In this document: one piece after another, positions 29,743-63,171 of the stretch
How positions within the stretch are numbered: position 1 is the first letter of the stretch
Layout: every line of letters starts with the position of its first letter
NCBI RefSeq assembly: GCF_000003815.2
Contig: NC_049993.1
Coordinates: forward strand, 18,880,050-18,944,049
Reading direction: 5' to 3'
DNA from: Branchiostoma floridae
Lineage: Eukaryota; Chordata; Leptocardii; Amphioxiformes; Branchiostomatidae
Length of the DNA: 64,000 nt
Position numbers and translations under genes: made by a program
Notes under the pieces: generated by a model
Seen by the model: only the letters and a program-made list of their open reading frames with translations
Told to the model about the DNA's origin: nothing
Database searches by the model: none

Positions 29743-30349
29743 GCAGGAATGGGATCCTAGCTAGCAAGCCTACCAACCCGCCCCCTTTAATTTCCAACAG
29801 AGAAAGTGCTCTCATGCTTTTACATACTTTTTGTGGCACAATTCATGATAGACGAACACCTATTATTGATTTAAACCATTGATTTATGCCAGTTTATTTA
29901 ACAAACAACAAAATTTTGTTGGCCTTTCAAACATATGATAAATTTTGACAACAGTCAGTCCTCTTGATTGTAAGTTTTCAATGAAGCAATCTCACATAAA
30001 TTATTCTAATCCTCAAAGAGACCTCTATCAGGATGAAATGATATTGCAGGAAACTGCAGAACAATGGCTGCATTCGCCTTGCAAAGTAAAAGTGGTATCT
30101 AAATCGCCTGCCCTTCCAATATGTTCTACTATGGAATTCTAAAAGAATGAAAATATCGTCACGTCACAGATACGATATTCCCGAGCATTTCAAATCCAAC
30201 TTCACATCGAAATTCATATGTTAACGTTCATCTAATGATATGATACCTTTTATGGCTTCTTATCGTCCTAAGTGTAGAGTGTTATTAAAGCTGCCGGGCG
30301 TCATGTAAAAGCTGAAGTTGTCCTGATACGTCAACGTCGACACAAAGGA

Positions 30350-30425
30350 AAACATTCCTGTCCTTGGTGCTGAACACAAACCATACGCAGGAAAACGCCC
30401 CTGCCCTTGGTGCTGAACGCCACCA
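30350..30425 (-). repeat. Two inverted units of the 39-bp minisatellite
   Basis: The segments ccttggtgctgaacacaaac and ccttggtgctgaacgccacc are reverse complements of the unit arrayed at 4935-5745. They lie about 250 bp upstream of repeat copy B. Confidence 0.7.
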
Positions 30426-30678
30426 GCATACAATAATCGCCGAAACAAGAGAGGCAGAACTGATTTCCCGATTGCAGTGCCTTCACGTTTAGTTGGGTGG
30501 CGCTTTATTGGTACCGTGTCACGGTCAGGGGCACCTTGATTGCTAAAAGCTGGGCAGACGTGAGTGCCTGCAGTACCTTCACCCGTCACTTTATGGGCGC
30601 TTTATGGGCGCCGTGTCACAGCCAGATGCAGCCTTTGTGACGAGGAATGGAGATGATTTAAAGGTGCGTAGCGGGATT

Positions 30679-36935: not shown

Positions 36936-39900
36936 TTATCTGCCTGCGCTGTACCCGGGGAACAGCAGGTTCAGGATGGCCTGTAGCGGCTTGTTGGTGG
37001 CCATGCTGTACCCTTTCCCAAGGTCATGTCGGCAGGCCGGGCAGCAGTACACCTCCGCACGGAACGACCTCTGCAGACATGCCTGAAGGTCAAACATGGA
37101 GACAAGGTCGAATACGTGTCAGACGGCAGAATTGAACAGAATTGAAAAGAATTATGGTTGTTACAAGATCAAGGTAGAAAATAGAAACAGGGTCATTGTA
37201 GTGTAAGTGAAGACCTTTGTTGTGTCAATACTTGGTAAGCCACACACACACACTAACACACTAACAATAACACACACACACACACTAACACACACACACA
37301 CACACACACACACTATCACTAACACTACCACATACCTTACAGACGTTGTGCCCACACTCTGTAGAGACCGGTTGAAACACCAGCTCCTGACAGCAGATGC
37401 ACAGGAACACACACACACACACTAACACACACACATACACACACACGCACACACTAACACACACACACTAACACCTACCTTACAGACGTTGTGCCCACAC
37501 TCTGTAGAGACTGGTTGGAACACCAGCTCCTGACAGCAGATGCACAGGAAGGTCTGAAGGTCTCTCACACACACACAAACACACACGCACACAGACTAAC
37601 ACTACCACTTACCTTACAAACGTTGTGCCCACACTCCGTAGAGACCGGCTGGAACACCAGCTCCTGACAGCAGATGCACAAAAAGGTCTCCTCGACCTTG
37701 GGCAGGAAGGAGTCCCCGCCCTTCGCTGCCTTAAGGGCCTCGTCCCACAGCTTCTTATTCTTCTCATCCTCCTTCAGCATCTTCTGAACCTCAGCTGAGA
37801 CTTCCCGCAGAGCCCCGCCCTTCTTCTTCTGGGGGGTGCCCTCGTCTGGTGGAACAAAGAAATTTAGTTATGTTAAGTCCCATGTCCCTAATTATGTTTT
37901 TCCCTGAAGGAGAAAACATTGTTTTTGCTGGTGTATTCTTTGTCTTTCGTATTTTATTCAACTTCACCTAGAAGATTTGAGAGGACCTGACAACAAGAAA
38001 ATCAATTTATTTGCGTGGCATGTTTCTATACGGAACAGAAGTTGTCAAGGATATGACCTATTCAACTTTAGTGTAATAACAGGAACAAAATAAAGGTGAT
38101 GATGAAATGATGACAGTTATAGCTCTCTTTGTAACTAGAGAATTCATTGGAGAAAATATTCTTCATAATTCCAAGTTTTGTTTTTTAAGGTGTGTTTAAA
38201 ACTCCTACCATCTGATCCCCGTTTCCTCTTGCCCTTCCCCTTGGCAGGTGTTCCTCCTTCCTTCTCCTTCTCCTTAGCAGCCTGGGCCTCCAGGTAGCCA
38301 TCAGGGTACTGAGACATACACACAACAGTACAAGATACTCCATCAAGGCATCCAACAAAAACTCAACTATTGTCTGTTGGTTTTGTAGAAAACCAAGACA
38401 AACATGTAAGGCTTGACCCTGAATATTTTCAGTTAAGTGTGGAGGCCCATGGATTAACGAACTGCTAGAACTGGCTTTCCTAAAACACAGGACCCGTACA
38501 TCTCATCCAGGTAGCTAGGTACTCAGTTTCACCTAGTCTAGTGAGGAAACATGTGAAGAGATGCCTTTCCCAAGGGCACAACATTGCGGTCTGCATGGGA
38601 TTCAAACTCAGAACCTTTAGATTTCAAGTCAACAACTCCAGCCCCAAAACCTTTTAGTGTAATAGAAAGGATTGATGGGTTTAAGCGATAGCACAGCAAG
38701 CACACCAGGGCATACCCCTTCTCTTTTTGATTAAGGTATCTCGGTTGGCTAAATTGGCATTTTGACCTTCAACTGTTTTCTTATTAACGAATTAAGAAAG
38801 AATGGAGCCGTAACGAATGTTGATAGATGGGCATTAAAGAATTCTAAATCTGATTTTTTGGGGGGCCAAATTGATGACGTCATCATTTTTATTGGCTCTG
38901 ATATTATTTTTTTCTATGACAAAATACAGCACTTTGGTACATACCACTGTAATGAAACTTCGTTTTCCGTTGCATAATGATGAAAGCTACAAACGTAGTG
39001 TTGCGCAAACTGATATCTACTAATGATCTGTAGTAATTAGAAACTGTTTGTTTTCATCTAATTAAAAAAATTTAATTCTTAATAACTACAGATCGTGAGT
39101 AGATATCAGTTTGCGCAACACTACGTTTGTAGCTTTCATCATTATGCAACGGAAAACGAAGTTTCATTACAGTGGTATGTACCAAAGTGCTGTATTTTGT
39201 CATAGAAAAAAATAATATCAGAGCCAATAAAAATGATGACGTCATCAATATGGCCCCCAAAAAATCAGATTTAGAATTCTTTAATGCCCATCTATCAACA
39301 TTCGTTACGGCTCCATTCTTTCTTAATTCATTGCTAAGAAAACAGTTGAAGGTCAAAATGCCAATTTAGCCAACCGAGACACCTTAAGTGTGGTGGGTTC
39401 TTTAACATGCCTGAGGTGTGGCCTTCCTTAAACACCTAACCTACAGTCTGAAGTGTCCTGCCTTACCTGCATGGTGAGTCCGAGTTTCTTGACCGTCTTC
39501 TGCCCCTCCTTGGTCCACGGCGCAGCTTCAGGGTCGTCACGCCGGAGCTTGTAACGCCAAACCAGGAAACCTGACTTCCCCTTCGCTGGCCAGTACTTCA
39601 CTATCTGTGGGGGAAACACAGGAGAAGAGTAAAATTTACGGTTTACATAGCTGGAATGTTATACAACATTTAATGCAGTTTTGAGGGAAATCGTACTTTC
39701 GCTTTGCTGGCCAGTACTTCACTATTTGTGGGGAGCAAATGAAGAAGGAAAGTCAAGCAATCCAATCTGAGCTTCTAATGAATAAATAAAGGTTCAAAAT
39801 CAAGAGTTACAAGGAGTGAAGGAGGATCTGTCCATAATTGGACGGAAGTGGAAGCTGCTAACTTTGATGATATACTGCATAAACTGTTACCTATACGATT

Positions 39901-42900
39901 AAGTACCAACAGACTTGCTCAGCTAGGAAATAATCAAACTCTTGGAAAAAAAATTGTTCCGTGTTTTGCAAAAATTTGTTTGTTAAAAATCTATCTCCAA
40001 AAAAATTGTAAGCCATCATTGAAGTTTAGGACCTATTAATTCTCTTGAGACATCTTTATAAGCAAATGGACATCTTTATAAGCAGTTGGAAAAAACATGT
40101 TCATTTCACATTTTTATATGTTCCATACCTTATAGATGCCGTCGTATCTGTTTCCTTCCTCAGGAGCGTACGTGGAGTGTTTCCTGCCCTTGCAGTTCCG
40201 CAGCACCCTGACAGGCTTGCCCTCCTGCCAGCGCTCCTTGCTGTCCGCTCCCTTCTTAGTGTCCAGCGCGGCCGCACAGTTACGAGCTAGGGCACTGGGA
40301 GGGAAAATATCAATTTTTAAACCTGAATCAAATATACAAACTACCCAGGGCTGTGCAGTTACGGGCTAGGGCACTGGGAGGGGTGAAAAATTAACATTAA
40401 AACTTGAATCAAATAAATTAGCTATCGAGGACTGACATGCTGTTCTTCTGAGAGGGGAAGGGGGAAAACTTAATACTACTTTTAAATCTGAATCAAATAA
40501 CTGAGTTAACTGTCCAGGCCTGAAATACTTATTGATAACGTCTGTTTTTTTTTTTTGATTGGCACCTGATTCATACCTGCATTCTTTTATCTTGCCCAAT
40601 TGCAAAGTTGTAAAGTTGCTTCTATTTCTTTTGCACACTGCAAACTTTTGAAGCAAGATCGTAGCTGCAGGTGGGTATGTTAAACTCATGGCAACTACCC
40701 TGACCCACATCTGAACACTGTATTTCCTATTTTATGAGATCTAATAGTTGGCTACACAACTTCTGCAAGCATTCCTAAATCTAAGACAAGGAACAGTGCC
40801 CCCTGTTGACTACAAGTGGTACTGCAACCCCCACTCACAGGTTCATCTTGGTGAGTTTCTGGTCACATGACTGCTCAGCTGTGCGCTTGTTCCCTGAGAG
40901 GTCGCGACCTCCGCTGCCTGTGTACAGGAACTCCTCCCCATCATCCTTTGGGGCAAAAACATCATTAGGACACAAACTATTTTTAATTTGCAAATTCTAC
41001 TGGTGCAATAGCTCAGTGGTTCGCCTTGCATTGGGGAGGTAGTGAGTTTGATCCCCAGCCGATTCATAGCAAAGACTTTAAAAATGGTACATGCTGATTT
41101 TTCTGCTTAGCACTCAGCACTAATGAAGAAGAGTATGGGAGTTAAACACATCACTACCAGCAGACTAGCCTCCTGCTATAGTGGCTAGAACATATGTGTG
41201 CCCAGGGGCTACAGAAATGGAGATGGGCGCCACCCTAAGCATCTGTTACAGATGCACGGCTACCTTAAAAAACTTATAGCACTCATATGAAGTTTCTTCA
41301 ACAGCGTTTTTTGCATACAACACAAAACTATTTTTCATTCATTGCCCTGAAGTGATCGCGTACTCACCTTGTCGTCCTCGTACCCCCCAGACAGCACGAT
41401 GGAGTACGCGCCCTCCGTCTCCCTCCCGTGGATCCCCGACACGTGCGGGCGGTGCACACCGGCCTCGCTGGCCTGGGGAGACAAACGCTCCCATTTTTAT
41501 TCAAGCAACCTTACATCTTCCCCTTTACTGTGTCGTATGCAATTCTGTTTTCAGAACTGTAGATCCAAATTGTGGATTCAAACTGCTATCCTTAAAAAAA
41601 TATGAAGAATTTTCTCACAGTTGATAAACTACAGCAGAACAAATTTTATCGAAGTTTCCTCCATTTTCAAAGTAGAATGTGTGATGCTGTTTAATTTACT
41701 TCTGGACTTCTTCAAATTGAGTGTTGTCTAAAAACATGATTATCATATTCCAGCATTTTCGACCTATACACAGCTATAAGAATGACTAACCTGCACGCGG
41801 AATTTCCACATGGTTCCCACGGGTACCCCTGGGATGGGTCCGAAGTGGTTCGGGGGGACCAGGTTACACACCTTCGTCCTGCCCACACACGCCATGCCCT
41901 GGGGAAAAAAAAGACAAAATTGTCATGACAAAACTAGACTTTGTCCAACCAACACTTAGGAAAGTTGAGACTTGTGAAGTCAGCAGAAAAATTTGGTTGG
42001 GTCCAAACTCTCTTTTACGCTGGTCAGATAAACTGCATAAAGTCAGTGTCATTTACCAAATACAGATAAGCTTTTAGGAGAGAATGTTATGTTTTTCTGT
42101 ACATGATTCAGTCTTTGCAAATATTGTACACAGCTATGTTTTCTTGCCAGCATAATTTTAACCTCAATAAACTTTCTATACTACATTTTTGTGTTTCTAC
42201 CCGAGTATTTCTTCAAGATTAAGTCAGTCTGCACCTGTGAAAATGCTTCAGAGCAGAACAACGTTCCCCCAAGGGAATTACTTTTAAGTCTACAATTCTG
42301 TAACAATACGATGAACAAACCTTTAATTCAAATGATAGGGAAAAGCTTAACACTAAGAGAGCAAGCAAAGAAAGGTCTATAGTAGTAACCCACCTTTCCC
42401 CAGTCCCTGGTGCTGGTGCCTTTAGCAGACGCCATCTTGGATTTCTTCTTACTCTCCTTGAGTTTCTCCCCCACCCTCACGATCTCAGACGTGTCGTTAC
42501 GGCACAGCGGGCAGTACCTGCAGGAAGAAAAGGATTTTTTTCAAATCTAGCCTGACAAAACCAAGTTTCGAGTAGCCCTTATACTGTTCAGTGACAGCGG
42601 GCAGAACCTGTGGGGAGTAGCATAAAACTCAGGCTGGTACTGAAAACATCTCATATTCAAACTTTATTGAATCAAAGAAATAACAATAATCTTATCAGTG
42701 GAGACTGACAAAAATATTTGGCACAAATTACTCAAATGGTAAGAAATTCAAAATGATGCACACACACACACACATACAGAAACACACAAACAACAAACTA
42801 CCCTCACCATTCGTCGTCATCCGGCAGTACCTCCATGGGTGGGGTGAAGCAGTACATGTGGAAGGGTTACACACACACCCACACGCACGCACACACACAC

Positions 42901-42918
42901 TCACTCATGCACCCACAT

Positions 42919-42953
<35 letters not shown>

Positions 42954-45900
42954 CTCATACACACACACACGCACACACACTGGGGTTTCAGCAGCAAGAA
43001 AATACACGTGTACAATATTTGCAAGGACTGAATCAGTAACAATAAGACGTAATGTTGTCTTTCCCCAGGGCATGGCATGTGTGGGCAGGACGAAACAGTT
43101 TCCTTCGTCGTCATCCGGCAGTACCTCCATGGGTGGAGTGAGGCAGTAAATGTGAAAAGGGGAGTCACACTCGTCACACACACGCGCTCACACACAGACA
43201 CACAAACACAAACAAACAAACACTGCCCTCACCATTCGTCGTCATCCGGCAGTACCTCCATGGGTGGGGTGAGGCAGTACATGTGGAAGGGTTACACACA
43301 CACACACTCACTCATGCACACAGACACACCACAAACACACACGGACAAATAAACAACAAACTGCCCTCACCATTCATCATCATCCGGCAGTACCTCCATG
43401 GGTGGGGTGAGGCAGTACATGTGGAAGGGTTACACACACACACACTCACTCATACACACAGACACACCACAAACACACACGGACAAATAAACAACAAACT
43501 GCCCTCACCATTCATCATCATCAGGCAGTACCTCCATGGGTGGGGTGAGGCAGTACATGTGAAAAGCGGAGTCACACTCATCACACACGCGCTCACACAC
43601 AGACACACACACAAAGAAACACACAAACAAACAAACAAACAAATGCCCTCACCATTCGTCATCATCTGGCAGTACCTCCATGGGCGGGGTGAGGCAGTAC
43701 ATGTGGAAGGCAGAGTCACACTCGCACAAACAAACAAACAAATAAACAAACAAACTGCCCTCACCATTCGTCGTCATCAGGCAGTACCTCCATGGGCGGA
43801 GTGAGGCAGTACATGTGGAAAGCGGAGTCACACTCGTCACACAGCAGCTGCTTGTCTGGGTCCTCCTTGCCCCCACACACGTGGCAGTTACAGTGCTTAC
43901 ACTTTTTGTTGGGGTCGTCTAAGCACTGCATGCACTCTGGGGTCTTCTTACCTGGAACATATCAGTGAAGCCATGTCAACTCATTGTTTGAAATATATCT
44001 TCTAGTAACCCCAAATTCACTATGCAAAGACATTACCTTAGATGTTTTCTTAAAAGACACAAATCTTTAACTGTTACACTTTCATGACAATAAAACAAAA
44101 CTTGTCATGGTCAAAGTATGGTTTACCACAACTTGTGAATTTGCAGCGATCTTTAGTACCACATTACAAACTCTTTCTTTTGCAGCTTTGGGAAAAAATA
44201 TGCTTGCAGATGTCATCTATTAAATCAAATGGCCCATGGCAAGCATTTGCTTGTTGGAGCAAGAAAGAATCTAACAATCAACAGAATATAATATGGACTC
44301 AGATCTACTTAAATCAGATGAATCATGGTTTTATAGAACCATGTTCTGAAATTTGATACTCTGCACAATCAGTTCTATGGAACCAAGTTCTGAAACTTAA
44401 CACCCATCTTTACAAGTCAAGTATAGTACTGAAGAAGCCCTGCTGTGTCCTTACGTCTGAGGTCATCCATGTCGTCTCCGTTGACCTGGTTGATGTTGAC
44501 GTTGGGACACTCGCCCGCCTTCTCGATCTTAAAGATCTCCTCGGTGAAGATGACTCGACAGTCCTCAATGGAGTCACCTCTAGAGCTGTGGACAGATGAC
44601 AATAATCTTTCATGCTTTTTGTCAGATTTCATCACTTTTGTCTGATGTTTTATCAGAAAAATATTGATACATTAGATTAGAACAGAGCTCTTCCTGGATC
44701 GAGGGTTCTATTCAGAAAACCACAGCAAGTACATACATGATTACAATACAAATGGCACAACAAGCCAACACAGAACAGCATACACATTAGAAATGTTGGT
44801 CAGCTCAGCTTACTCATGATTTCTACAAGAATTTGAATGTACATTAAAAATAGTTTTTATACTTTTTCATTTTAACACTAGACTCTACCATCATCTTGAA
44901 TCAACAGCCTCAATTCTGAATAACAATAAGAACTTACCCCAACAAGATTCTGCCAAACAGTTCTTTGTTGGTTCTCTTGGACTTCTGCAGGGGTAAAATG
45001 GGGAGAAAACACCATAACCCACATCAAACTTTGAACACATGAACTACTAGTATTACTGCTGCATTGTGTACAATACAAGTTTTCACCTTCATACTGGACA
45101 TGTGACAATAACCCTGCACAAGTGAACAACATCTGGCCAACGTGACCATTTCTTGGTGGTCCCTTAAATGATTGTCTCATTGACTCAAGAATTAAGAATC
45201 TTGTGTAGCGACCACACACCCACTATGGTTCTTTTCTTCCAAGTCCCTTGACTTGAGTGGGTGCAACAGATAAAGCTTGTATTACTTTATCAACACTCTG
45301 ATGATCATGATGTCCTCCATATCATGCAATGTGCAAAGAAAAAAAGATACCTGACCAAACTTTTCATGTCCTTACCTTTGCTGTGACCTCGATGTCGTAC
45401 CAGTACCCCCGCTCCTTGGGTTCGTCGGGGTTATAGTTCGCCATAACCAGCATGCCCTCCTGCACGTCATCGAACGGGACGACTGTCCGTGCTCGCGGTC
45501 TGATGTCCACGCTCCGTAGCTGCGCGATTTCGTCCTCGTAGCTGGGAGGGAAGGTTGTCAACACAGGTTCCAGGGGGGAAAAGGCACATGGTAGAAAACA
45601 TTCAACATCAAAAGTGTATTATTAGTAATATTATGGCAAAAATACTCCCATTCTATCAACATCATTAACTTATTTATAGGGGAGGGGGGGGGGCAACAAA
45701 GTCATTTGCAGATTATCATTAACTTATTCATACAGAGAAGACAACAAAATCACTGAAGATTGCGCAGATTGCAATGACTGCAGGGCTGTCTCCAGCTTTA
45801 AATTTTTTCCCGTCTCACTTATTCTTTGGGAGCCCATGTTGCTGATTGTCCTGGTTGAACATGTCACTTTTAGTTCATGAAAGTAGATTTCAGTTTCATG

Positions 45901-48900
45901 TCATTAAGTGCAGATTTGACGGATAGGGTAAATTTTATTTCCCTGTCCCATCAAGCAATTTTCCGTCTGTGGGAGGGGTCCTGGAGACAGCCCTGAATGA
46001 CTAACAAAAAACACATCTCAAACCTGTCTTTAACTGATGACAGTCACTCTGATGACCAGCTATACTTGCAAAGAAGTCAAATGATGACAGACACTTTTGA
46101 GACCAATATAGCAATGAAATCATGTATTTTTGACATTTTGTATATCTTTACTAGTAAGTTTAAAGTTTTGTTTCCTCCCCTTTCAAAACTTTAAAACGTA
46201 CAACAATCAAAGGATGCTTAAAAGAAACAATACCTACTCTTCAAACTTGACATGGTACACCAGTCCTTCCTCTTCCCCAGTACTACTCCCGTGTCCGTTC
46301 TCTAACACATTTCAGAACTTAAAAAACTGTGTACAACAATCAAAGAATGACATAAAGAAATACAACCTACTCTTCAAACTTGACGTGGTACACCAGCCCC
46401 TCCTCTGCTCCAGTACTACTCCCATGTCCGTTCTCTAACACGTGTTCCGCAGAGGCTCCATTGGGAAGGCCGTCCACCTCCATGTCTTCGCTAGCGTCCT
46501 TCCCCGGAGAGGTAGCTTGAACGTCCGCGGACCCGTTCGTTTCCTCGGTTTCTTGTGAGGTAGTTTTATCGGCGCCTTTCCCTGATTGCGCGGCCGGGGC
46601 GGGTGAGGTACCCCCAGAGGTAGAGGATTCTTCGCCGTCCTCCGAAAGTCTCGATTCTGAGGTACCGTTTAGCCGAGAGTTCGAGCTGCCCTGTACGGAA
46701 ATGTCTGTTGTCGTAGCAGCGGCAGCAAGGTCTTTGGACTCCACTGTTCCCTGAGAATTGTCTTTGTTGTCGGAGGAGACGTCGTCTGTCTCGGATGCCT
46801 GCGTAATTTTCAGGATCGTGGCCTCGAACCAGGCTCCAATCCGTAAGTCTCTGGCATCCACTAAGTCTCCTACCTGCAAAAGGATGTGAGAAACACTTTT
46901 TTAACTCCCCAATCAGTTTCAAAATCAGTGATTTGTGAACTGTGGAACAGCTTGACACTCTTCAGATAGAATGATATATATATAATTCACATTTCTTAGG
47001 TCGTGGGCCCTATGCTACAATATCTACAGACCGTGCTTTCAAATGTATACATAAAGTCAGTTTATCTTATTAACTTTAGCATTCCACATTCGCCTATTCC
47101 TGGTAGAATGATGACAACTCTTGTCAGATCTCAGGCCATATCACTGAGTTACAGTATTTCAGTCTCAAGATAATATCCCTTTACTTTTGTGCCAAATTTC
47201 ATCTCACTTTATGAAAAAATGAGCCAGTTATAAAACCAATGCCATTATTTTTTTAAGGACCCTCGTGTCTAACTTGTGGTCGAATCCAATATCACTGTAG
47301 TATTTAAAAGTTTGTCACATGCAGAGAGAGAAAGACAGAGGGAGAGGGGGAGGGGGGAAGAGAAGAGAGAGAGGGTGGAGAGAGGAAAGAGACAGAGGGG
47401 GGGAGAGAGATTAAAGAGAGTGACAGAGACAGAGAGATAGACAGAGCTACATTTACATATTGGTTTGGGGAAGTACAAATTTGGAATACGCAAACTACGT
47501 TAATGCAACCCACTGTTCCTAGAATCCTGACATTCCTTACCGCGTAGAGTCCTTTGATCTGTTCCACCTGCCCGCTTGTTGAGGGGTCGGACAGGCCTGT
47601 GTCTGAGTCCACATCACCGTTGGTCATCTGGCAAAATAGAAAACATTTATCAACAGCTGCTACATTCTATGGTTCACAGTAAATATGTTTCTGTAGCTGC
47701 ATGTTACTGTATTCACTTTAATTAAATTTTGAAAGAAGGTAAAATTGGTATATAAATTTTGAAAGAAGTTAAAATCGGTATCTCTTTCAAATCTAGTTTA
47801 AACAGGATGTTTCTCCTTCAGGAAACATAATTTGAAATAAATAAATTTGAAAAGTAAAACTGAAATCTATAACAAATTTTACCTTAAGATTCCACAGTAC
47901 AAAAATAGGGAAGAATCTTTTTTTTATCAAACCAACTCTTGTATAAAACCCTTTGTCCCGTATACATCTAACAGAAGAGAGTATAAATAGCAACCAATTT
48001 TGCGGTCCAATAAAACCGCTCCTTACCGGTGTGTCGGATGGTGTCGATGGCTCCAGCTCTTCCATCGGCTCCTCCTTGTCGGAGGCGGTTTCCGTGGCAA
48101 CCGAGCTGCCTCCTGATTGGTTGGTGGCGGCTGGCCTAACCAGCAGCTGGATGATCTCATTGAGACCCACACTGTAGTCAAACAGGGTGTGGCCATCCTC
48201 CAGCTCAGGGGTAAACAAACAAACAAGGACATTAGTAAACAAACATGACAATCATGGATGGCAGACTTCACCCCCTCACCTATACTGGGGAATACAAGGC
48301 AATCAGGGATGGCAGACTTCACCCCCTTACCCTCTGAGTCTGACCAATGCTGTAGTCAAACAGGGTGTGGCCATCCTTAATCTCAGTGGTGAACAAAAAT
48401 AAAAAAAGGTATCAAAACCAGAAGTTCTGCTGCAGAACTGTAACCAGCCATTAAGGGCCCAAAAATCTAATCATTTTAAGGTTTCGTCAAGATTTACCCA
48501 AATATTAATACAATACACCCAGGCCTTCTCAAATTATGCTGTCCATCCACTAACATAGATACACACATAGTACACATACCCCAACTTTCCTCACTTTTAG
48601 GTGACTAACAAACACAAAACGGTGGTCTTGTCTAATCTCCAAGCAGATCCTACAATGGCATAAAATAGTACCAAACTGGCCAAGGAGTGTAGTCAGCCAA
48701 GAGGTGTACATTTGCCATGTAGCCAAACACACTCCTAAGCCGGCTTCACTCCTCTGCCAGCTTTTGCTACCATAGGATCTGCTTGGAGATTAGGTCTTGT
48801 CATTAAGTTGTTGACTGTGGAATCTCAGGGTCAAGGTCAGGATTTTATTTTACTGTAATGGTAATGGAAGGTAGCTGGTGGGATGGTGTGGAAAGGGGTC

Positions 48901-53666: not shown

Positions 53667-53966
53667 TTTGGCCGAATTTCGTGGCGAAAGTTTTGTAGCA
53701 GCGTGCTTGTGGAAAGGGGCGAGAGATGTGATAAAAGAAGTGAACACAAACGGCTTTAAATATGATAATTTCACCCACGTGTGGGAATGGCGCGAACAAC
53801 CTCTCGCCAAATCTCGTCCGAAAATATACCCACTTTTACAAACCACGGCACCGAAATAAAACACAGAAATGTACAAATGGTTCTATATATTCATTAGATA
53901 GACAAGTTGAATGTGGAAATGATAAATGGCGGGAAATATGAGAGAATATTTTGTGATGAAAGGAAG

Positions 53967-53976
53967 TCTCGCGAGA
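53967..53976. promoter_or_regulatory. TCTCGCGAGA palindrome
   Basis: A perfect 10-bp palindrome, between the two E2F-like sites. In vertebrates this motif marks CpG promoters, many of them bidirectional, and is bound in an unmethylated state by BANP (established knowledge). Confidence 0.6.
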
Positions 53977-53995
53977 GCAGGATGCAAATACAAAA

Positions 53996-54007
53996 TTTGG
54001 CGGGAAA
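53996..54007. promoter_or_regulatory. E2F-like site TTTGGCGGGAAA
   Basis: Matches the classical E2F consensus TTTSSCGS with the GGGAAA extension, about 330 bp upstream of the UHRF1 start codon. A second GGCGGGAAA lies 60-70 bp closer to UHRF1. Confidence 0.6.
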
Positions 54008-54778
54008 GTTGATGGGTTGATGTGGGAGTCAGCCATGCGTGAAGCCGGGGCGCTGTCAACAAAGGACCGGGCGAACCTGGCGTCACATAAAAACAAATAC
54101 TAACGTCCCCAAAGAAAGGAACAAACTGAGGAAAGGCTGGTGAGATTTCCCTTCGTAAAATTGAAAACACCCTTGTGAGAAGGCTGTGCTGTTTTTAGCA
54201 TATTAAACATGCTTAGATTAATTATTGAGAAACATATGCTTATATTTTTGTATCGTTTGCTTTATCTAAATGCCCCTTGAACTTGAGCCCGTGATGATGT
54301 TGCCAAATGACCTTGAGATGAGTGACAGCACAGATTGACGATTTTCTGTGCCAAAGTTGAGGCCAAGGTTGCCACGCCCACCCAAAACAAGAGACCCATA
54401 GATTTCAGACTATACCAAAGAGTTTACAGGGGTGATGGCTAAATGAAGCACATTTCAAAGCATCGTCTTATCTATGACATTACTAGATAGATTACTTAAT
54501 CATTGCTTTGTAGATAAAAATTTTAGCAATATGCGTAATAAGTAAACAGTGGCAGGTGAAAGTCCGGAGGCGGCCTGCCGTCTTGTGGACTCACCTGCCG
54601 ACCTCTGACCTACAGAGGCATTTAGGACCTGTCACGCCAGCGGTGGGAGCGAATCATAGACCAGCCCGCGAACAAAACTCTCTCAAACTGCGACTGTGGG
54701 GCAGAAACGCTCCAACTGCAACATAGATCGCATTTTAGACATCCCTTCCAACATTTCTGAACGTCAGTCTCGGTCAAG

Positions 54779-57700
54779 ATGCTCGGTTTCTTGCTTTTTC
54801 TGTTGGTGGTTTTCGGTGGCGCTGGACTTTGGGTTCACCTGAAGGGGATAGAGTATGTCTTGGTGCACCAGAGATGGGTGTTTGTTTGCTTCTTCCTTTT
54901 GCCGCTAAGCGTGATCTTCGACTTGTACCACTACCTGCGGACTTGGATCGTCTTCCAGCTGCACAGCGCGCCCAAGAAGCATGACGAGAGGGTCAGGAAT
55001 ATCCAGAAACAGGTCAGACCTTGGGACAAATTAATTAGACATCGATTCACACAAGGGCGTTTCGTAACCTCCAAGCAGATGTCTGGTAGGAGCTCGTATT
55101 AATCTTGTAACGTGACGTCTTTTGTTTTGGCTTGTTTTCTAAGTTGTTGTTACGATGAAGACATGTCCTCTTGAAAATGGAACCACATAAAAGTCGTGCA
55201 AAACGAGTGAATTGGATAGCAAAAACGTTGCAAACCACATAACGTTACATCTGCTTGGAGCAAGGAGATTACGTGACGGTATTGTCACCTGAGGTGTCTC
55301 TCTTGGTGACGGCCTAGCGATCGTGTTTCTGTTTATTTTGGGCTAAGCATGACTATATTTAAGAGACTAAGACTACAATATTGGTGATATTTTAGATGTG
55401 GGACCACAGTGTGGTCTGATGTCAATGTTTGTGTTGCCATGGCAACAGAACCATTCCACCTGTCACCTTCACTGTGTTATCTAGAATGTTCCAAGGTTGT
55501 TGCCATTTGGGCATATGTTGCAATGAAGTGAAAACCAATTCATCAACTCTGGATGATGTGGTTTTCAGGAGTTTTTGTTGTTGAATGGCTGGCGAATTCA
55601 GCAACCCAGCAAAACAGCGAATTCAGCAACACTTCTGGAATTTTTTAGAATTAGATTACCTTAGAAAAATAAGTTAGATTATCTATTGAAGAGATAAATT
55701 GAAGGAGGCTTTTCTTACAAACCAAGAACACGTCATTGAAATGTTATGTGTATACTAGTGACTGTGTTTTAGGGATGAACTTTGAATTCTCTTGGTGAAT
55801 TTAGCAGCCCGAAGAGAGCATTTCTATAAAAGTACATAACGTCCACCACACAGAAAAGCTAAGTCAATATTGGACTTTCAGCATGTCAGTCACGCATGCA
55901 GACAAAACCTGCAGAGGGAAGATTTTGTCCCACAAATTTAGTTTTAATTACAAATTACATATTTACAAGTATTTCACGGCCAACATGTTATGAATATTCT
56001 AAAAATGCAATTTTAACCGAAATTATGTGCATAAATGTCTGATTTAATGTCCTTCTGGAAAGAAAAGTACATTTACATTTACATTTATTTTATTTAACCA
56101 GGTATTAGTTGGGTATTTCCATCGACCTTTGCCTCCTACAGAATCTAAAGAAGAAAGGTCAGGGCCAACATGACTGCCTATTATAAATAAAGGTTTTTAT
56201 AATTGGTTTATTGTTTGACCAGAGTGTCTTGTATGCTCTACTGGATGTTGACCCCATTTTAGACCAGAGGGGTGATAGGTCAAATCCTAACCTGTTGTCT
56301 TGCCCACTACTGGAAGGGTTTGCAATCCATATATATATGATAAGATATAGTTGTCCTTAAAGATTTTCCCTGGAAACTTGGAAACAAGTTTGAGCTACAT
56401 TTGTTTCTTGAATGAAAGCTCATCTGTGTTGCTGGAATCCATAGTTGTAAATTTTAAGCTTTGTTCGACACAAAGAAAGAAACTCACCATGAATTTTTGG
56501 TTAAGCTTGTCAACCTTGTACGTTTGTTACAGTCAGATGTATGTTTTGCATCACTGACATTCCGGAAGTTGGAAGATGACGTCAGCAGCAAATTGTAGAT
56601 GGCGGGAAGACGGAATCTGACATGTTTTCTTCTTTCCGCAGGTGCGAGCGTGGAAGGAAGATGGCAGCCGTTCGCAGATGTGCACGGCGCGGGCGGGCTG
56701 GCAGACCATGAGCCTCCGTGTCGGGAAGTACAAGCAGACGATGCGCAACATCAACATCAACCTCATCGACATCCTGGAGGTCGACATCGAGCGCCAGGTC
56801 AGACTGCACCAATGAGATGCCTTGTTTCTGATGTGTGAAATTATTTGTTTTTGTAAACAGTTTGATTTCTGTACTTGAATGTAAGTTCATCTGTGACGGT
56901 AGTTTGATTTCTGATCCCATATTGCGTTTTGAAAGCTTTGAAAGAAGAATGAAAGAAATGTTGACATAAGTTCAGTTTCTAACGTCATTTTCTTATTGTT
57001 GTTGTTGTTGCATCAAAGTATTTTTCTCATTGTGAGAGGAAAATAGTGAGCCTGAATGCCAGCCTACTATAGTAGGTAGCTGATAAGTCTTCACCCCAAC
57101 AATTGGCTATAAAAAAAAGGCTTTAAAAAAAGAGTTAAATTTACAATATGCAACCTTCTACATGTTTATGTAGTCTCAGAAACTTGTCTGAGTTAAGACC
57201 TCCTGTAGTTTAAGGTGGTACAAAAAAGTACCCTTTTCATACGTAGTGGCAGATATTTGCTGTCCCAAAGCTAAGTTCCCGACCCCCCCTGTGCCTGTGC
57301 TTGTAGGTTGTCCGAGTGGAGCCGCTGGCCACCATGGGACAGGTCACAGCCTCACTGCTGCCACTGGGATGGACCATTCCTGTGCTGCCGGAGCTCGACG
57401 ATCTCACTGTCGGTACGGCTCATCCATTGATTGATTAATTCATTGGTTGGTTATTGCTTATTGGGTGGGCTGACTACTCTCTCCTCGCACCCAGGGGCTG
57501 AAAACAATCGATCAGGTGACCTCAATACAACAGCAATTGCCCCAGGTGTAGCCATTGGACTTTAGGTTTTGAACCGCTCACTGATTGATTGATTGATTGG
57601 TCAACTCATTGTCACAATATCTATGTAATACTATGTGACAATGCCTTACCATTGGAACCACATTGTTAGCAGTAACACCTATAGCTAGATGCAGTACACA

Positions 57701-60700
57701 TTGAACCAGTCATTATTGTTTTTTAACTGACAGCCACACATTGACTGTTGCAGTGGACCAGTGCTCTTTGGTTGGTTTTATGTTCCATAACCCTGTCTAG
57801 ACTCACTTTGAAAGTTTAAAGTGCATTGAAAGTGTATCTTTGTTCTGCATACATAAACTACTATTACAGGTGGGTTATGCATACAGTTACAGGTGGTTTG
57901 ACATGTTAACTACAGGCATGTTCTGTTGTTCCTTGTCCAGGTGGCCTTATCTGTGGTGTAGGTGTGGAGACCTCCTCCCATCACTATGGACTGTTCCAGC
58001 ATGTTGGCTACAGTTTTGTTCTGTTGTTGCAGGTGGCCTCATCACTATGGACTGTTCCAGCATGTTGGCTACAGTTTTGTTCTGTTGCAGGTGGCCTTAT
58101 CACTATGGACTGTTCCAGCATGTTGACTACAGTTTTGTTCTGTTGCAGGTGGCCTTATCTGTGGTGTAGGTGTGGAGACCTCCTCCCATCACTATGGACT
58201 GTTCCAGCACACCTGTGAAGCGTTTGAGTTGGTGCTTGCTGACGGGAGTCTGGTCAGGTGCACAAAGGTGGGGAATGTGTCTGCTCTCATTACATGCATA
58301 CTTACATTTTGAGCTACATGTAGGGATGTGTACATTGTACCTAAACAGGGGTGGTTACCAGTCTTGGTGGAGCAGTCCGAAAAAATGGACCTGATACAAA
58401 TCAGTGAACCAGATGTTGGACCAAATAGAAAATTATTCAGATTATATCTGCAGGCATTCACAGGTTTTGGGGCTTACAGGTCCAAGAAAATAATAAGAAT
58501 AATAAGAGTGAAGTAGAGTAGAGTTTACATTTATTTCTAATAAGTATCTACTGTCAAGCATACAGAGTCTAAATGTACATGTACATGAAGACAGGATTCT
58601 AAAATGCCAGAGGGAGTCGGATACTCCACCAAACAGAATCCTTTTGTAGAAAATTGGACCATTGTATTGAGTACTGTCCATTCAAAAGTTTTCACAAACC
58701 TGAGGACCAGGACCTTACCCTCTGGACCTGAATCGTACCTGTACCTGTACCTGAAGTTTCTGTACTGGTACCCACCCCTAGTCACGAGAATGGTCTTTTA
58801 GGGCAATTTTGACTGTTTCAGGTGCTTCCATAATCCATTAAAAACTTTTTCTCACATCCAGGATGAGAACCCTGACCTGTTCTACTCCGTGCCCTGGTCC
58901 CATGGAACCCTGGGATTCCTGGTTGCTGCGGAGATTAAGATTGTTCACGCGGCGAACTTCGTGAAAGTGGAGTACAAGCCTTGCCACAGCGCTGAGGAGA
59001 TCAACAAGGTCTACACTGAGGAGGTCAGTACATGGGCTGGGTTTCACCTGTGTGCGAAATCCTTTTTTCAGCCAGGTTGCACAGGCAGCATCCTGAGTCA
59101 TAAGAAGCTAGGTTGTGCCATCAACATTTTATGTTTACCCACTTCGAAGTTATTACTTAAATAAATCAGCTACATACCCATAATCTTTTCTACCAGTTAC
59201 ATGTAACTACTTATGTTTTATCTTATCAAGACATAAATACAAAAGCTTATGCACATAGGCGGGGGAAAAGCAGGGCTCCAACTGCAAAATTTCAGGTTGT
59301 GCAATGTGCTATCTGTGTTTAAAATTAAGTTTGGCAAAGGTGTATTTCAAGCACTGGTTTCACTGACACTCATCTGTGCAGGGCAGCCTATTCGACAAGG
59401 GCTGCTTTCCTAAGGTGTTGTGGCCCATGTATTTTAGTCTGTTGAAAGTTAAAAGTCAGTCAAAGCCATCTCCGTTTCTTTAGCCCTTGGGCCACACAGG
59501 TCCACTGCAGTAGGGCTTTACAACTTAAAAGTCTTTGGTAATAAAGTGTATTTAACTCACATGTGCTTTCTCCTGTTAGCAGAGTGTTGAACAGAGAAAG
59601 CAACTTGCAGCCCAACTTGCTGTCAGCTTATTACATCTGACTGGACATAATCAAGTTCAGTAGAAATAATCCTTATTAATTTTCTTTGGTTGTTCCCAGG
59701 TCATGAAGAAGAGTGAGAACGACTTTGTGGAGGGACTGATGTACAATGAGAACCAGGCGGTCGTCATGACAGCCAACCTGACCAATCAGGCAGAGCCTGG
59801 AAAGGTAGGCGTGGTCTCTAGGTCATTGTCATAGCACTAATCTGACCAATCAGACAGAGCCGGGAAAAGTGGTTCTTATAGAAAGGACTGCAGTTCTGTG
59901 ATAAGATCATCCTTCTTCAGAGATGTTAGGGCTTTTGTGCTGTGTATGGGGGAGCTTCAGGTGTCAAAACCCCTGCACATGAAAGAACCCAACCCACTTG
60001 TTGATAAAAGTGTTGACGAATGTGCTTACAATTATGGTCAAATCTTGGGCTGAGATGATGTCCGTCCTGTCACTTTGGATACTTTGGACAACAGTGTTTA
60101 TAGAGAGCATTTTCTTAAAATGCTGTAACAGTTACACAGTAATGATTTTGCAGTAACTAGATTCAGCAACTAATTTGGGCTTTCAGCATGTTAGTGACGA
60201 GGATTGTTTCCATCCCAGGTGAACTCCATCGGGCTGTACTACAAGCCGTGGTTCTTCAAGCATGTGGAGTCATTCCTGAAGACTGGGCCTGGGGTCGAGT
60301 ACATTCCGCTGCGTCACTACTACCACAGGCACACTCGCAGTATCTTCTGGGAGCTACAGGTAAACACTAACACACTACTACCACAGGTAAACACTAACAC
60401 ACTACTACCACAGGTAAACACTAACACACTACTACCACAGGCACACTCGCAGTATCTTCTGGGAGCTACAGGTAAACTTTTTTTGTACATGGTTGGGTTA
60501 GGTTGAAACTCCTTCATAGTGTAAAACTCGTACTAGGTGTGAAAGATTACCCCCAGCAGCAGAGAACTTCATCTGCCTCAAAGAGTGCCTGGCCTATCCA
60601 CCATAGGCTGGATACCAGGTAACACTCAGAGGTGTTACTAAACAACTGTGTTACAGTTACTGTGAATATTTGCATGTAGGACTAATCACATGAAACATCA

Positions 60701-63171
60701 CTCAGCAGTGTTTAGTGTTTAGTTATAATAAGTGAAGAAGTGCTTTTGCCAAGTTGTTTTTGTTTCTCTTATCTAAATGAACAGGTTCTTCAGCTGTATT
60801 AAACCACATGTACCTTTATATTATGTTGTTATCCCATTTCTTCTCTTTGCACCCAGATTTTTAATTTAGGTGCACCTGACAGACGAAAAATGTCCAGACT
60901 TTGCATGATGTACAAAATGACCAATAAGCTGGTGGACGTACCAACTGATAAGTATCTAATACCAGCTCAAAAAGAACAAGAAACAGCCATGACTTCAAGT
61001 ACCAGAGTTTTCAAGCTAGGATTGATGTGTTCAAAAATTTCCCAGAACTATCGCAGATTGGAATTTTTTATCACCAAGTACAGTAGGGGCATCTTCTCTG
61101 GATAGTTTTAAAGAACGCTTGCAGATAGATGTGCAAAAGTTAGGTATGACGGATCGTTCAGTGTAATATAACTAGCTGCTGCCGCATCGCGTGCCTGCGA
61201 AGCTGATGTGTTACACCGAATGGCGGTTATACCGGCTATACAGATACAGATACATTGTGTGTACCTGTTTACCTATTCTCAAAAAGAGATTTCGAGCCCT
61301 GCTCGATATTTTGTTTGTTTGTATATAGGACATCATGTCCTTTGAAAAAGTCAAATTTTCTGGTACAGTTTTGAAATAAAACATTTGTTTATTTGTTTGT
61401 TTGTTTATAGGACATCATCCCGTTCGGAAACAACCCGGTGTTCCGGTTCCTGTGCGGGTGGATGGTCCCCCCAAAGGTGTCGCTGCTGAAGCTGACTCAG
61501 GGCGAGACGGTTCGCCAGCTGTACGAGAAACATCACGTCATCCAGGACATGCTGGTCCCGCTCGGCAAGATGTCCGAGGCTCTCAGGGTCTTCCACAAGG
61601 AGATCAAGGTTCGCATGAAAGCTCATCTGTGTTGATGTAGTACATATTGAAGATTTTTCACTGTCTTACAACACCCAAACTTGCTTACCTCGAATTTTCA
61701 GTCGCACTTCTGTCGACCTTCTTCAGGAGTGATGATTCAGTTACTTTGATCACGTGACTTAGAGACACGTGATTCTAGTAACGAAACATAAATGCCTGGC
61801 AGGCGATATCGGCCCCCGTCTCTGTTGAGTGTCGGCTGATGTGCTCTTATGTAGATGGCCTCCTTAACCCCCCTCACAAAGTAATCCGGTTCAGTGTCCA
61901 ATATTTGTACCTTGTCCAAGGGGATGAATGTTCGTTCGAGATCAAGGTTCGTGTTCGAACATAGGATTGGGAGGTCACAGTTTTTATTCGTTTTTACAAT
62001 TCGTGTAACATACATTAAGTAAAGCTAGGCTTTTGGTTCGGCTAGCAGAGATGGAATTGAGCAGTCACAGATTTGATTCCTACAAAGGTACAGTGTTTTG
62101 CAAGAAAGTAATAATAGTTTGAATTTTTAGCAAATTTGAAGTAGTAAGGCAAATTGGAAGTTTAGTTCAGTTCAGTTTATCCTCATAAGAGGTGCCATTA
62201 ATGATGTCTCAGACCATGCATTGGAAGAAACATCTATAGACATTTTATATGTACACAACTGCAATGGGAGTTCAGTATAGGTCATTACAGCTCTCAATGT
62301 AATCATGTAATATCCCCCTCTCTGCCCCTGTAGCTGTACCCCCTGTGGATGTGCCCCATGCTGCTCCCCTCCCAGCCCGGAATGGTACATCCCAAGGGTG
62401 ATGAGGATGAGATGTACGTAGACATCGGCGCGTACGGCGAACCAAAGACTCTCGACTTCGAAGCGACCGCCACCACCCGCCGCCTGGAGGAGTATGTACG
62501 CAGCGTGAACGGGTAGGGACCATTTTCCTTTACACACCTACATTTTGTACAAACATTTTGTATAAGGCCCCAGTAAAGGAGAAGCTTCAAATAGATTTTC
62601 CAAATTTCAACCTCAACAAAGGAGATCTAGCAAAGATCTTCTTAGGTACATTTGACACAAGTTCATTCAAAAGGATTTTTAAAGGCAATTCTTAATATGT
62701 TAGGTGAAAGAACCATTTTGGTGTAATGAATAAGATGTTTCTTCTTCCTCTGCATATCTTTTTGACTTTGCCAAACATCTGAAACGGTCCAAAAACTGAT
62801 GGCATTTCTTGAACCCAAACTGTTTGTGTTACCAAGGTGCCATTCTGCAATAAACGAAAATGTGGACATTTTAGGCCCAGTTTCCAGATGCTGTATGTTA
62901 TGTGATGTGACAAAGATAATTCCTCATATAGTAAGGTTCTTTGATACACAACCAGAATTGTGCTCACCCCCCCAACCTCAGACTAACATCAGAATGAAAA
63001 ATGACTTTTCCCCCCAGTTTCCAGATGCTGTACGCTGACTGCTACATGACCCGTGAAGAGTTCCGCCAGACGTTTGACCACACCCTGTACGACAAGCTGC
63101 GGACGGACCTCGGGTGCGAGAAGGCCTTTCCTGAGGTCTTCGACAAGATCTGCAAGAAGAACAGGCTCTAA
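54779..63171 (+). CDS. DHCR24: DHCR24, delta(24)-sterol reductase (complete)
   Basis: Ten exons join in phase to 517 aa (human 516): 54779-55012, 56642-56797, 57307-57412, 58149-58267, 58862-59023, 59700-59804, 60219-60359, 61411-61608, 62334-62512 and 63018-63171 (stop TAA). The enzyme uses FAD and NADPH to reduce the C24 double bond of sterol side chains, such as desmosterol to cholesterol, in the ER (family knowledge). The sequence shows N-terminal hydrophobic segments (residues 1-20 and about 33-60). The FAD-binding PCMH-type domain includes [19 protein letters not shown] and [10 protein letters not shown], then [15 protein letters not shown]. Later conserved blocks are [49 protein letters not shown] and [10 protein letters not shown]. 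Nothing essential appears missing. It lies head-to-head with UHRF1. Four exon borders carry partial tandem copies. Confidence 0.97.
57941..58148 (+). repeat. Three partial copies of the DHCR24 exon 4 start
   Basis: Copies begin at 57941, 58033 and 58091, each after an AG acceptor, and repeat gtggcctta and catcactatggactgttcca. The last two have a 58-bp period. The true acceptor is at 58147-58148. Using the other acceptors would add 58, 116 or 208 nt, none divisible by three, so only the last keeps frame. Confidence 0.9.
58340..58795. repeat. Dispersed TIR element in DHCR24 intron 4
   Basis: The end gtacccacccctag and internal blocks (ggacctgatac, gaaccagatgttgg, caggttttggggcttacagg, agtagagtagag) match, in inverted orientation, the element at 63222-63620. 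No coding capacity. Confidence 0.7.
59822..59871 (+). repeat. Copy of the DHCR24 exon 6 end
   Basis: atctgaccaatcagacagag followed by ccgggaaaagt repeats the exon 6 end ctgaccaatcaggcagagcc (exon end 59804), with the donor decayed. Confidence 0.78.
60360..60471 (+). repeat. Tandem copies at the DHCR24 exon 7 end
   Basis: Three 27-bp units (60360-60386, 60387-60413, 60414-60440) join donor sequence gtaaac to the exonic actactaccacag. A copy of the last 31 exon bases with its donor follows (60441-60471). Read-through to the second donor would add 112 nt and shift the frame. Confidence 0.92.
60875..61270 (+). mobile_element. L2/CR1-like 3' end, copy 2 (degraded)
   Basis: Reads [18 protein letters not shown], then after a stop [12 protein letters not shown], then a UTR with gctgctgccgcatcgcgtgc and ggttataccggcta. 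It is homologous to 18930-19300 and contains stops and a truncated 5' part. It lies in DHCR24 intron 7. Confidence 0.75.
61680..62020 (-). mobile_element. Penelope-like 3' fragment in DHCR24 intron 8
   Basis: A minus-strand frame (61737-62015) includes [20 protein letters not shown] and [20 protein letters not shown], the C-terminal part of the Penelope GIY-YIG nuclease region. It is followed downstream by a hammerhead-like motif at 61690-61730. It is truncated at the 5' side. Confidence 0.8.
61688..61731 (-). ncRNA. Hammerhead-like motif with AATT stem III
   Basis: The minus strand shows CTGAAGA (61720-61726), extra A, stem II GGTCG/CGACT, GAAA, then AATT (within 61692-61699) and C. Stem I CTC/GAG is short. 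Stem III differs in sequence from the ACGT copies but is again self-complementary. Confidence 0.6.
62875..62900 (+). repeat. Copy of the DHCR24 exon 10 start
   Basis: cccagtttccagatgctgta repeats the acceptor and first codons of exon 10 (start 63018), 143 bp upstream, and then diverges. Confidence 0.78.

What the first reader, a model, noticed from the sequence alone, without database searches (positions are those of the whole stretch)
37333..62900. Exon-intron borders are tandemly duplicated across two genes
At least 11 of the 50 internal exon borders of UHRF1 and DHCR24 have one to six partial copies: UHRF1 exons 2, 4, 8, 9, 13, 14 and 16, and DHCR24 exons 4, 6, 7 and 10. Units span exon end, splice site and intron together, with periods from 27 to about 140 bp. 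Both starts and ends are affected. I recall minisatellites over exon-intron borders being reported at an amphioxus Adh locus, so the type may be known there. Density across two neighbouring genes suggests a genome-wide process, for example replication slippage or repair anchored at splice-site sequence.
Basis: partly seen in the sequence, partly recalled or inferred. Interest (0 to 1): 0.85.

Follow-up and report, generated by a model that had tools for sequence, protein, structure and literature searches.

The report
Exon borders multiplied as minisatellites
In this lancelet-type genome about one in five tested exon-intron junctions has been copied, some of them many times, into the neighbouring intron; the phenomenon is already known as 'mirages', and what is new here is a first estimate of how common it is and the finding that repeat arrays inside the tested genes tend to include a junction.

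Summary
Nine of its 11 hold strictly; it missed a DHCR24 exon 8 copy and an inverted copy of the UHRF1 exon 10 acceptor. Shuffled sequence gives almost none. The type is known: amphioxus 'mirages' (Adh3, globins, PGBD5 and others).

I tested other genes of the same genome. GLDC and GPI were picked beforehand as hits of E. coli enzymes; a membralin-like gene lay in the flank. In all, 24 of 122 borders have strict copies (GLDC 8 of 20, GPI 3 of 34), on two contigs. Position by position, borders are no more repetitive than introns (26 of 122 against 896 of 3540). Array by array they are: 20 of 33 arrays contain a border, 6.2 expected; in the two pre-chosen genes 10 of 17, 2.8 expected. Allowing 1.8-fold for easier detection leaves P 0.006 for these. 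Units are mostly not cut at splice sites, so anchoring there is not supported. Cause of the border preference: open.

The parts
36936..53666 (-). UHRF1-like gene, 17 coding exons (model)
   Evidence: the spliced aligner recovered all 30 borders between exons 2 and 17 with guides of 39-97% identity
54779..63171 (+). DHCR24-type gene, 10 coding exons (model)
37241..37689 (-). UHRF1 exon 16 donor array; real border 37612, copies at 37478 and 37335, unit about 134-143 bp with CA-rich intron part
39686..39756 (-). copy of UHRF1 exon 14 acceptor (real border 39604), period 121; acceptor AG lost (AA)
40356..40434 (-). copy of UHRF1 exon 13 acceptor (real border 40294), period 79
42586..42647 (-). weak copy of UHRF1 exon 9 acceptor (real border 42517), period 90
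   Evidence: does not pass the strict test
42755..43836 (-). UHRF1 exon 8 donor array; real border 43764, border copies at 43652, 43508, 43370, 43232, 42807, and an exon-end copy without donor at 43104
43051..43093 (+). INVERTED copy of UHRF1 exon 10 acceptor (real border 41898) inside the exon 8 array
   Evidence: score 32.2; 40 bp, 92.5%, E 1e-9; only inverted border copy of score 16 or more among 50 borders
46179..46307 (-). copy of UHRF1 exon 4 donor (real border 46370), period 133
48333..48420 (-). copy of UHRF1 exon 2 acceptor (real border 48203), period 178
57902..58209 (+). DHCR24 exon 4 acceptor array; real border 58148, copies at 58090, 58032, 57940
59821..59872 (+). weak copy of DHCR24 exon 6 donor (real border 59804), period 64
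   Evidence: not strict
60315..60477 (+). DHCR24 exon 7 donor array: 27-bp units from the donor on, then a perfect copy of the exon end displaced by 112 bp
62761..62899 (+). copy of DHCR24 exon 10 acceptor (real border 63017), period 137

Best explanation
These are 'mirages': tandem (once inverted) duplications whose unit has one end in an exon and the other in the adjoining intron. SHOWN: the unit contains the border; the border copies lie in introns and the exon-proximal border continues the reading frame; 20 of 22 same-strand border copies keep AG or GT; most would shift or stop the frame if used; arrays range from one copy to many (36 BLAST matches at a GLDC donor); within the five genes tested arrays contain a border about three times as often as random placement predicts. 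INFERRED: a duplication by slippage or template switching copies exon end plus splice site into the intron; splicing goes on using the exon-proximal site, so the change is tolerated; unequal exchange, partly between haplotypes, then expands, homogenises and shrinks the array; the exon copy, kept constant by selection on the protein, remains a good template, whereas purely intronic arrays decay. That 'living template', or a mutational hot spot at borders, would explain the border preference; I cannot tell which.
For: Strict copies at 11 of 50 borders, 2 of 18 membralin-like, 8 of 20 GLDC, 3 of 34 GPI. Copy anatomy and splice dinucleotides. Inner copies of the exon 8 array are 98% alike over 205 bp, while its copies match the real exon end at 85-93%. 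Of 77 distinct exonic differences between copies and real exons 42 are silent, against 36-44% expected for freely drifting copies (P 0.0007 to 0.04 by assumed transition bias), and 12 of 13 at UHRF1 E4 and E16 (these two picked after seeing the data): transfer from another allele would do that. The inverted E10 copy argues for template switching besides slippage. Same anatomy in print: passages of PMC3087553, PMC3902484.
Against: By position, borders are not enriched (26 of 122 against 896 of 3540; without GLDC 17 of 102 against 391 of 2705). An ungapped coverage test on the window genes (8 of 50 borders) gave P 0.11 by rotation and 0.05 within introns. The array excess in the window genes weakens when weaker repeats are let in: 9 of 19 at score 14 (footprint null P 0.03), 9 of 22 with distances up to 400 (P 0.22, one CA-repeat cluster left out). 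GPI alone shows no array preference (2 of 5, 1.2 expected, P 0.36) and membralin none (1 of 4, 0.8 expected). No RNA, no second individual and no reads were available, so splicing, instability and mechanism are inferred.
Confidence: 0.82

Rival explanations
1. Ordinary intronic minisatellites in a minisatellite-rich genome; in compact genes some cover a border by chance.
For: Local arrays are common here: 94 clusters in 264 kb, 11% of bases; intron points are as repetitive as borders; rotation P 0.11; expected border share from random placement is already 20%; weaker arrays show less excess.
Against: 20 of 33 arrays contain a border against 6.2 expected, also in the pre-chosen genes taken together; in the window genes 7 of 7 arrays of score 25 or more do.
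Confidence: 0.2
2. The border excess is a survival effect: purely intronic duplicates diverge on both sides, border duplicates only on one, so the latter are recognised longer.
For: Follows from neutral decay; simulation raises the expected border share from 20% to 21-36%. With 9 of 19 arrays at score 14 the excess is then P 0.009 to 0.07.
Against: The simulation does not model repeated re-seeding from the exon, which would be a stronger form of the same idea.
Confidence: 0.4
3. A mutational process (replication or repair) is targeted to splice-site sequence.
For: DHCR24 E7 27-bp units and GLDC E7 42-bp units start at or within four bases of the donor.
Against: In ten measured arrays the border is inside the unit at varying distance from both ends; acceptors and donors are both hit (7 and 5).
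Confidence: 0.1
4. Assembly artefact: collapsed or merged haplotypes of a very polymorphic animal.
For: An older amphioxus assembly is reported to contain allelic swaps and misassemblies around repeats (passage in PMC2632668); the GLDC stretch contains 25.9 kb of N.
Against: Periods of 27-178 bp with copies mostly at 75-100% identity do not look like merged haplotypes; the window has only 200 N, none after 12313; the published PGBD5 repeats were confirmed by re-examined Sanger and new Illumina data (passage).
Confidence: 0.05
5. The copies serve alternative splicing.
For: 20 of 22 keep the splice dinucleotide; the DHCR24 E7 27-bp units would add VNTNTLLPQ in frame.
Against: Only 3 of 22 would keep frame without stop, all in one array, and one of these has lost its GT; survival of 20 of 22 dinucleotides is about what 10% divergence predicts (own estimate).
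Confidence: 0.05

Closest known systems
Amphioxus 'mirages' (Adh3; retinol dehydrogenase, presenilin, troponin C, globins BflGb6 and BflGb9, PGBD5)
   Same: Tandem units span an exon-intron boundary at either exon end, many copies keep AG or GT, inner units are homogenised, units of 10 to about 160 bp (passages of PMC3087553 and PMC3902484; the Adh paper itself is not held).
   Different: Here several borders of the same gene are affected at once (8 of 20 in GLDC), some arrays are long (36 BLAST matches at one donor), one copy is inverted, and frequency is measured on 122 borders.
Intron gain by internal tandem duplication of splice-like sites (Rogers model; potato RdRp, Drosophila cases)
   Same: Tandem duplication carries splice signals and could create new exon or intron ends (listing and starts of abstracts; passage).
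   Different: No new intron is evident here; the duplicated border stays inside an existing intron.
Ordinary minisatellites / VNTRs
   Same: Head-to-tail units of 27-180 bp, homogenised inner units in the array examined.
   Different: One end of the array is a protein-coding exon end, and such arrays are over-represented in the genes tested.

Membership tests
amphioxus mirage minisatellites | repeat unit spans an exon-intron boundary | tested here: met
   11 of 50 borders strict, 2 more weak; alignments
amphioxus mirage minisatellites | both 5' and 3' exon boundaries can be affected | tested here: met
   7 acceptors and 5 donors among 12 same-strand cases
amphioxus mirage minisatellites | many but not all copies keep AG or GT | tested here: met
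   20 of 22; the exon 8 copy at 43104, which lacks the donor, was not among the 22
amphioxus mirage minisatellites | inner units homogenised, edge units diverged | tested here: met
   UHRF1 E8 only: an inner pair 98% alike over 205 bp, copies against the real exon end 85-93% in the exonic part
amphioxus mirage minisatellites | cephalochordate genome | tested here: inconclusive
   genome unnamed, 513 Mb; ten Rfam mir-2060 matches, a miRNA name listed for B. belcheri
amphioxus mirage minisatellites | length variation between haplotypes, somatic instability | not testable with these tools
   one assembly, no reads, no relatives held
amphioxus mirage minisatellites | normal mRNA despite the copies | not testable with these tools
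   no transcript data; gene models with exon-proximal borders give uninterrupted proteins

The most novel reading that the evidence does not exclude
Mirages are not intronic minisatellites that happen to touch exons. Roughly a fifth of all exon borders in this genome carry them, they make up most of the sizeable tandem arrays inside genes, and coding exons act as permanent templates from which arrays are re-seeded, so that introns grow from their edges by copies of their own splice sites.
Probability: 0.4. Interest if true: 0.68.

Novelty: new member of a known kind. Interest (0 to 1): 0.5.

Why it matters
It turns a curiosity known from single genes into something countable: about 20% of 122 tested borders, with many competing splice sites at some of them. 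That makes two open questions testable in one animal: how the spliceosome picks the right site among near-identical neighbours, and whether intron growth and shifts of intron position start from duplicated borders, as proposed for the globin genes (PMC3087553).

Tried and rejected
Splice-site anchoring of units: not supported. Point-wise enrichment at borders: not found. Alternative-splicing function: only one array could add codons in frame. Base composition as a cause: no clear GC difference between affected and other borders (P 0.56 intron side, 0.24 exon side); affected borders have more low-complexity intron sequence (P 0.018) and longer introns (782 against 509 bp median, P 0.021), on 12 against 38 borders, uncorrected for four tests; the longer introns may be effect rather than cause. 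One search aligned several copies with themselves; its counts are not used, one search replaces it. Finding further genes in the fetched flanks with E. coli proteins: no hit with 105 open frames. Of eleven E. coli queries planned six were sent and two answered (gcvP, pgi); metH, glgP, sdhA and acnA never were, so the pre-chosen sample is two genes.

Dropped or set before counting: GLDC mini-exons 4 and 5 (four borders, all with strict copies; with them 12 of 24); membralin exons 3 and 4 and everything after the exon 12 acceptor (doubtful model); the membralin E5 acceptor, corrected after the test, is counted as no although BLAST at a neighbouring point finds a 73% copy; membralin E9 donor scored 13 and is counted as no; GPI E13 acceptor has a 71-bp, 96% copy that reaches only five bases into the intron and is counted as no; GPI exon 2 (10 bp) is doubtful but kept, both borders no; the exact GPI exon 3 acceptor is uncertain by some 20 bases. 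Control points of membralin and GLDC were chosen with the full models, doubtful exons included.

Full report
OBSERVATION. I rebuilt both genes from the raw sequence. UHRF1 runs on the minus strand with 17 coding exons and DHCR24 on the plus strand with 10; every intron has GT and AG. UHRF1 is confirmed by Pfam and by PDB chains named UHRF1. For DHCR24 the searches only show a FAD-binding oxidase. The 25 introns give 50 internal borders. Each was compared with its surroundings by local alignment. Eleven of 50 have a partner of score 20.1-41 that spans the border; the next score is 11.3. Shuffled sequence gave 0 or 1 segment at score 15 or more in each of five runs against 193 real ones.

ANATOMY. 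In ten arrays measured, the unit holds 18-77 exonic and 4-117 intronic bases; in five of them homology covers 96-100% of the period, as in true tandem duplication, and in the others 49-78%. The border copies lie in introns. Of 22 same-strand border copies examined 20 keep AG or GT; 3 would keep the frame without a stop if used, all in the DHCR24 E7 array, and one of these 3 has lost its GT. The exonic parts of copies differ from the real exon at 103 of 1064 aligned bases, the intronic parts at 138 of 1091. Of 77 distinct exonic differences 42 are silent; a model in which the copy drifts freely and the exon changes silently predicts 36-44% (P 0.0007 to 0.04 by transition bias). At UHRF1 E4 and E16, picked after the fact, 12 of 13 are silent. 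The simplest reading is that some copies were transferred from another allele.

TEMPLATE SWITCHING. Inside the exon 8 array, at 43051-43093, lies an inverted copy of the exon 10 acceptor from about 1.2 kb away (score 32.2; 40 bp at 92.5%). It adjoins an exon 8 copy that lacks its donor; the few bases between them are flanked by GACGAA and TTCGTC (sequence printed). Among 50 borders it is the only inverted copy of score 16 or more; among 1661 control points 59 have one, in 7 loci, one of them a palindrome. Slippage alone does not invert.

IS IT MORE THAN BACKGROUND? By position, no. Intron points 35 bp or more from a border are in repeats about as often as borders: two window genes 206 of 1477 against 11 of 50; membralin 60 of 454 against 2 of 18; GLDC 505 of 835 against 9 of 20; GPI 125 of 774 against 4 of 34 (score 16 or more). 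Exon interiors: 28 of 334 in the same calls. Two permutation tests on the window genes gave P 0.11 and 0.05. By array, yes. Among arrays with period 15-300 and score 20 or more, 9 of 12 in the window genes contain a border (2.6 expected from unit length and border density), 1 of 4 in membralin (0.8), 10 of 17 in GLDC and GPI (2.8), in all 20 of 33 (6.2; P 1.6e-8). Multiplying expectations by 1.8, about the largest detection advantage seen in a decay simulation, leaves P 3e-4 overall and 0.006 for the pre-chosen genes. Most of the latter signal comes from GLDC (8 of 12); GPI alone gives 2 of 5. Letting weaker repeats in lowers the excess in the window genes: 9 of 19 at score 14 or more, 9 of 22 with distances up to 400 (footprint null P 0.03 and 0.22); with a five-base rule 12 of 20 clusters contain a border.

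OTHER GENES OF THE SAME GENOME. The genome is an unnamed assembly of 513 Mb. I wrote a spliced aligner and checked it on UHRF1 (exons 2-17) and DHCR24 with guides degraded to 39-65% identity: all 48 borders were recovered exactly, with two extra borders in one run. E. coli glycine decarboxylase found GLDC on the window's contig C15, E. coli glucose-6-phosphate isomerase found GPI on C6; both were planned before any of their sequence was seen. Of the GLDC stretch 25.9 of 48 kb are N, yet 8 of its 20 certain borders have strict copies (12 of 24 with two doubtful mini-exons). BLAST finds 36 spanning matches to the exon 2 donor (units of 45 bp over 1.6 kb), 14 to the exon 7 donor, 10 to the exon 1 donor and 6 to the exon 2 acceptor (matches to very short units may overlap, so these are not exact copy numbers). 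GPI: 3 of 34 strict. A membralin-like gene in the flank, recognised by its protein while I was reading a list of open frames in which a repeat was already visible, has 2 of 18 strict and two weaker ones. Together 24 of 122.

HOW IT WORKS. Shown: duplicated borders, their position in introns, retained splice signals, homogenised inner units at UHRF1 E8, an inverted copy, excess of border-containing arrays in the genes tested. Inferred: duplication by slippage or template switching; tolerance because splicing keeps the exon-proximal site; growth and loss by unequal exchange, partly between alleles; persistence because the exon copy is held constant by selection. Whether borders are also hit more often by mutation cannot be decided here.

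WHAT IS KNOWN. Passages of PMC3087553 describe the same structures in globin genes under the name mirages, cite Adh3 and two further loci (references on retinol dehydrogenase and presenilin), report length instability, and propose them as a source of new introns. Passages of PMC3902484 describe 60- and 108-bp units over PGBD5 splice sites, confirmed by re-examined and new sequence data, and cite troponin C. The original Adh paper was not available. In the listings of my library searches I saw no paper on UHRF1 mirages and no genome-wide count; DHCR24, GLDC, GPI and membralin were not searched by name, and subscription journals are mostly not held.

VERDICT. Confirmed observation, known kind, new members, with a frequency estimate and evidence that tandem arrays inside the tested genes prefer to include an exon border.

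Noticed in passing
3417-3589, 4931-5700 (+), 30346-30439 (-): A dispersed 43-bp minisatellite matches the Rfam microRNA family mir-2060 ten times. The B. belcheri mature sequence bbe-miR-2060c-3p in PMC5650284 (passage) closely resembles part of the 43-bp unit, so this annotated miRNA family may be two units of a minisatellite; one copy folds at -35.2 kcal/mol, z -2.2.
   Followed up: partly
38731-39387: Near-perfect foldback element in UHRF1 intron 14: arms of 200 and 134 nt, 94-97% complementary, 10 nt between the inner arms.
   Followed up: no
3813-4816: Open frames with a weak GIY-YIG match (E 3.8e-4, below cut-off) between two 43-bp minisatellite arrays and across an N gap; from memory it resembles a Penelope-like element.
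   Followed up: no
7223-9988 (-): Single long LRR reading frame with tandem repeats of 72 and 96 bp; long open frames with similar N-terminal sequence recur through the left flank.
   Followed up: no
60360-60440: 27-bp units behind DHCR24 exon 7 keep the reading frame and would add VNTNTLLPQ repeats if the next donors were used.
   Followed up: partly
L032-L036 (C15:21315001-21363000): GLDC introns are rich in tandem arrays, many of them copies of exon borders: intron points in repeats 443 of 644 in the first modelled part and 62 of 191 in the second.
   Followed up: yes
146-1648 (-): Reverse transcriptase frame (RVT_1, E 3e-33), from memory of a non-LTR type.
   Followed up: no
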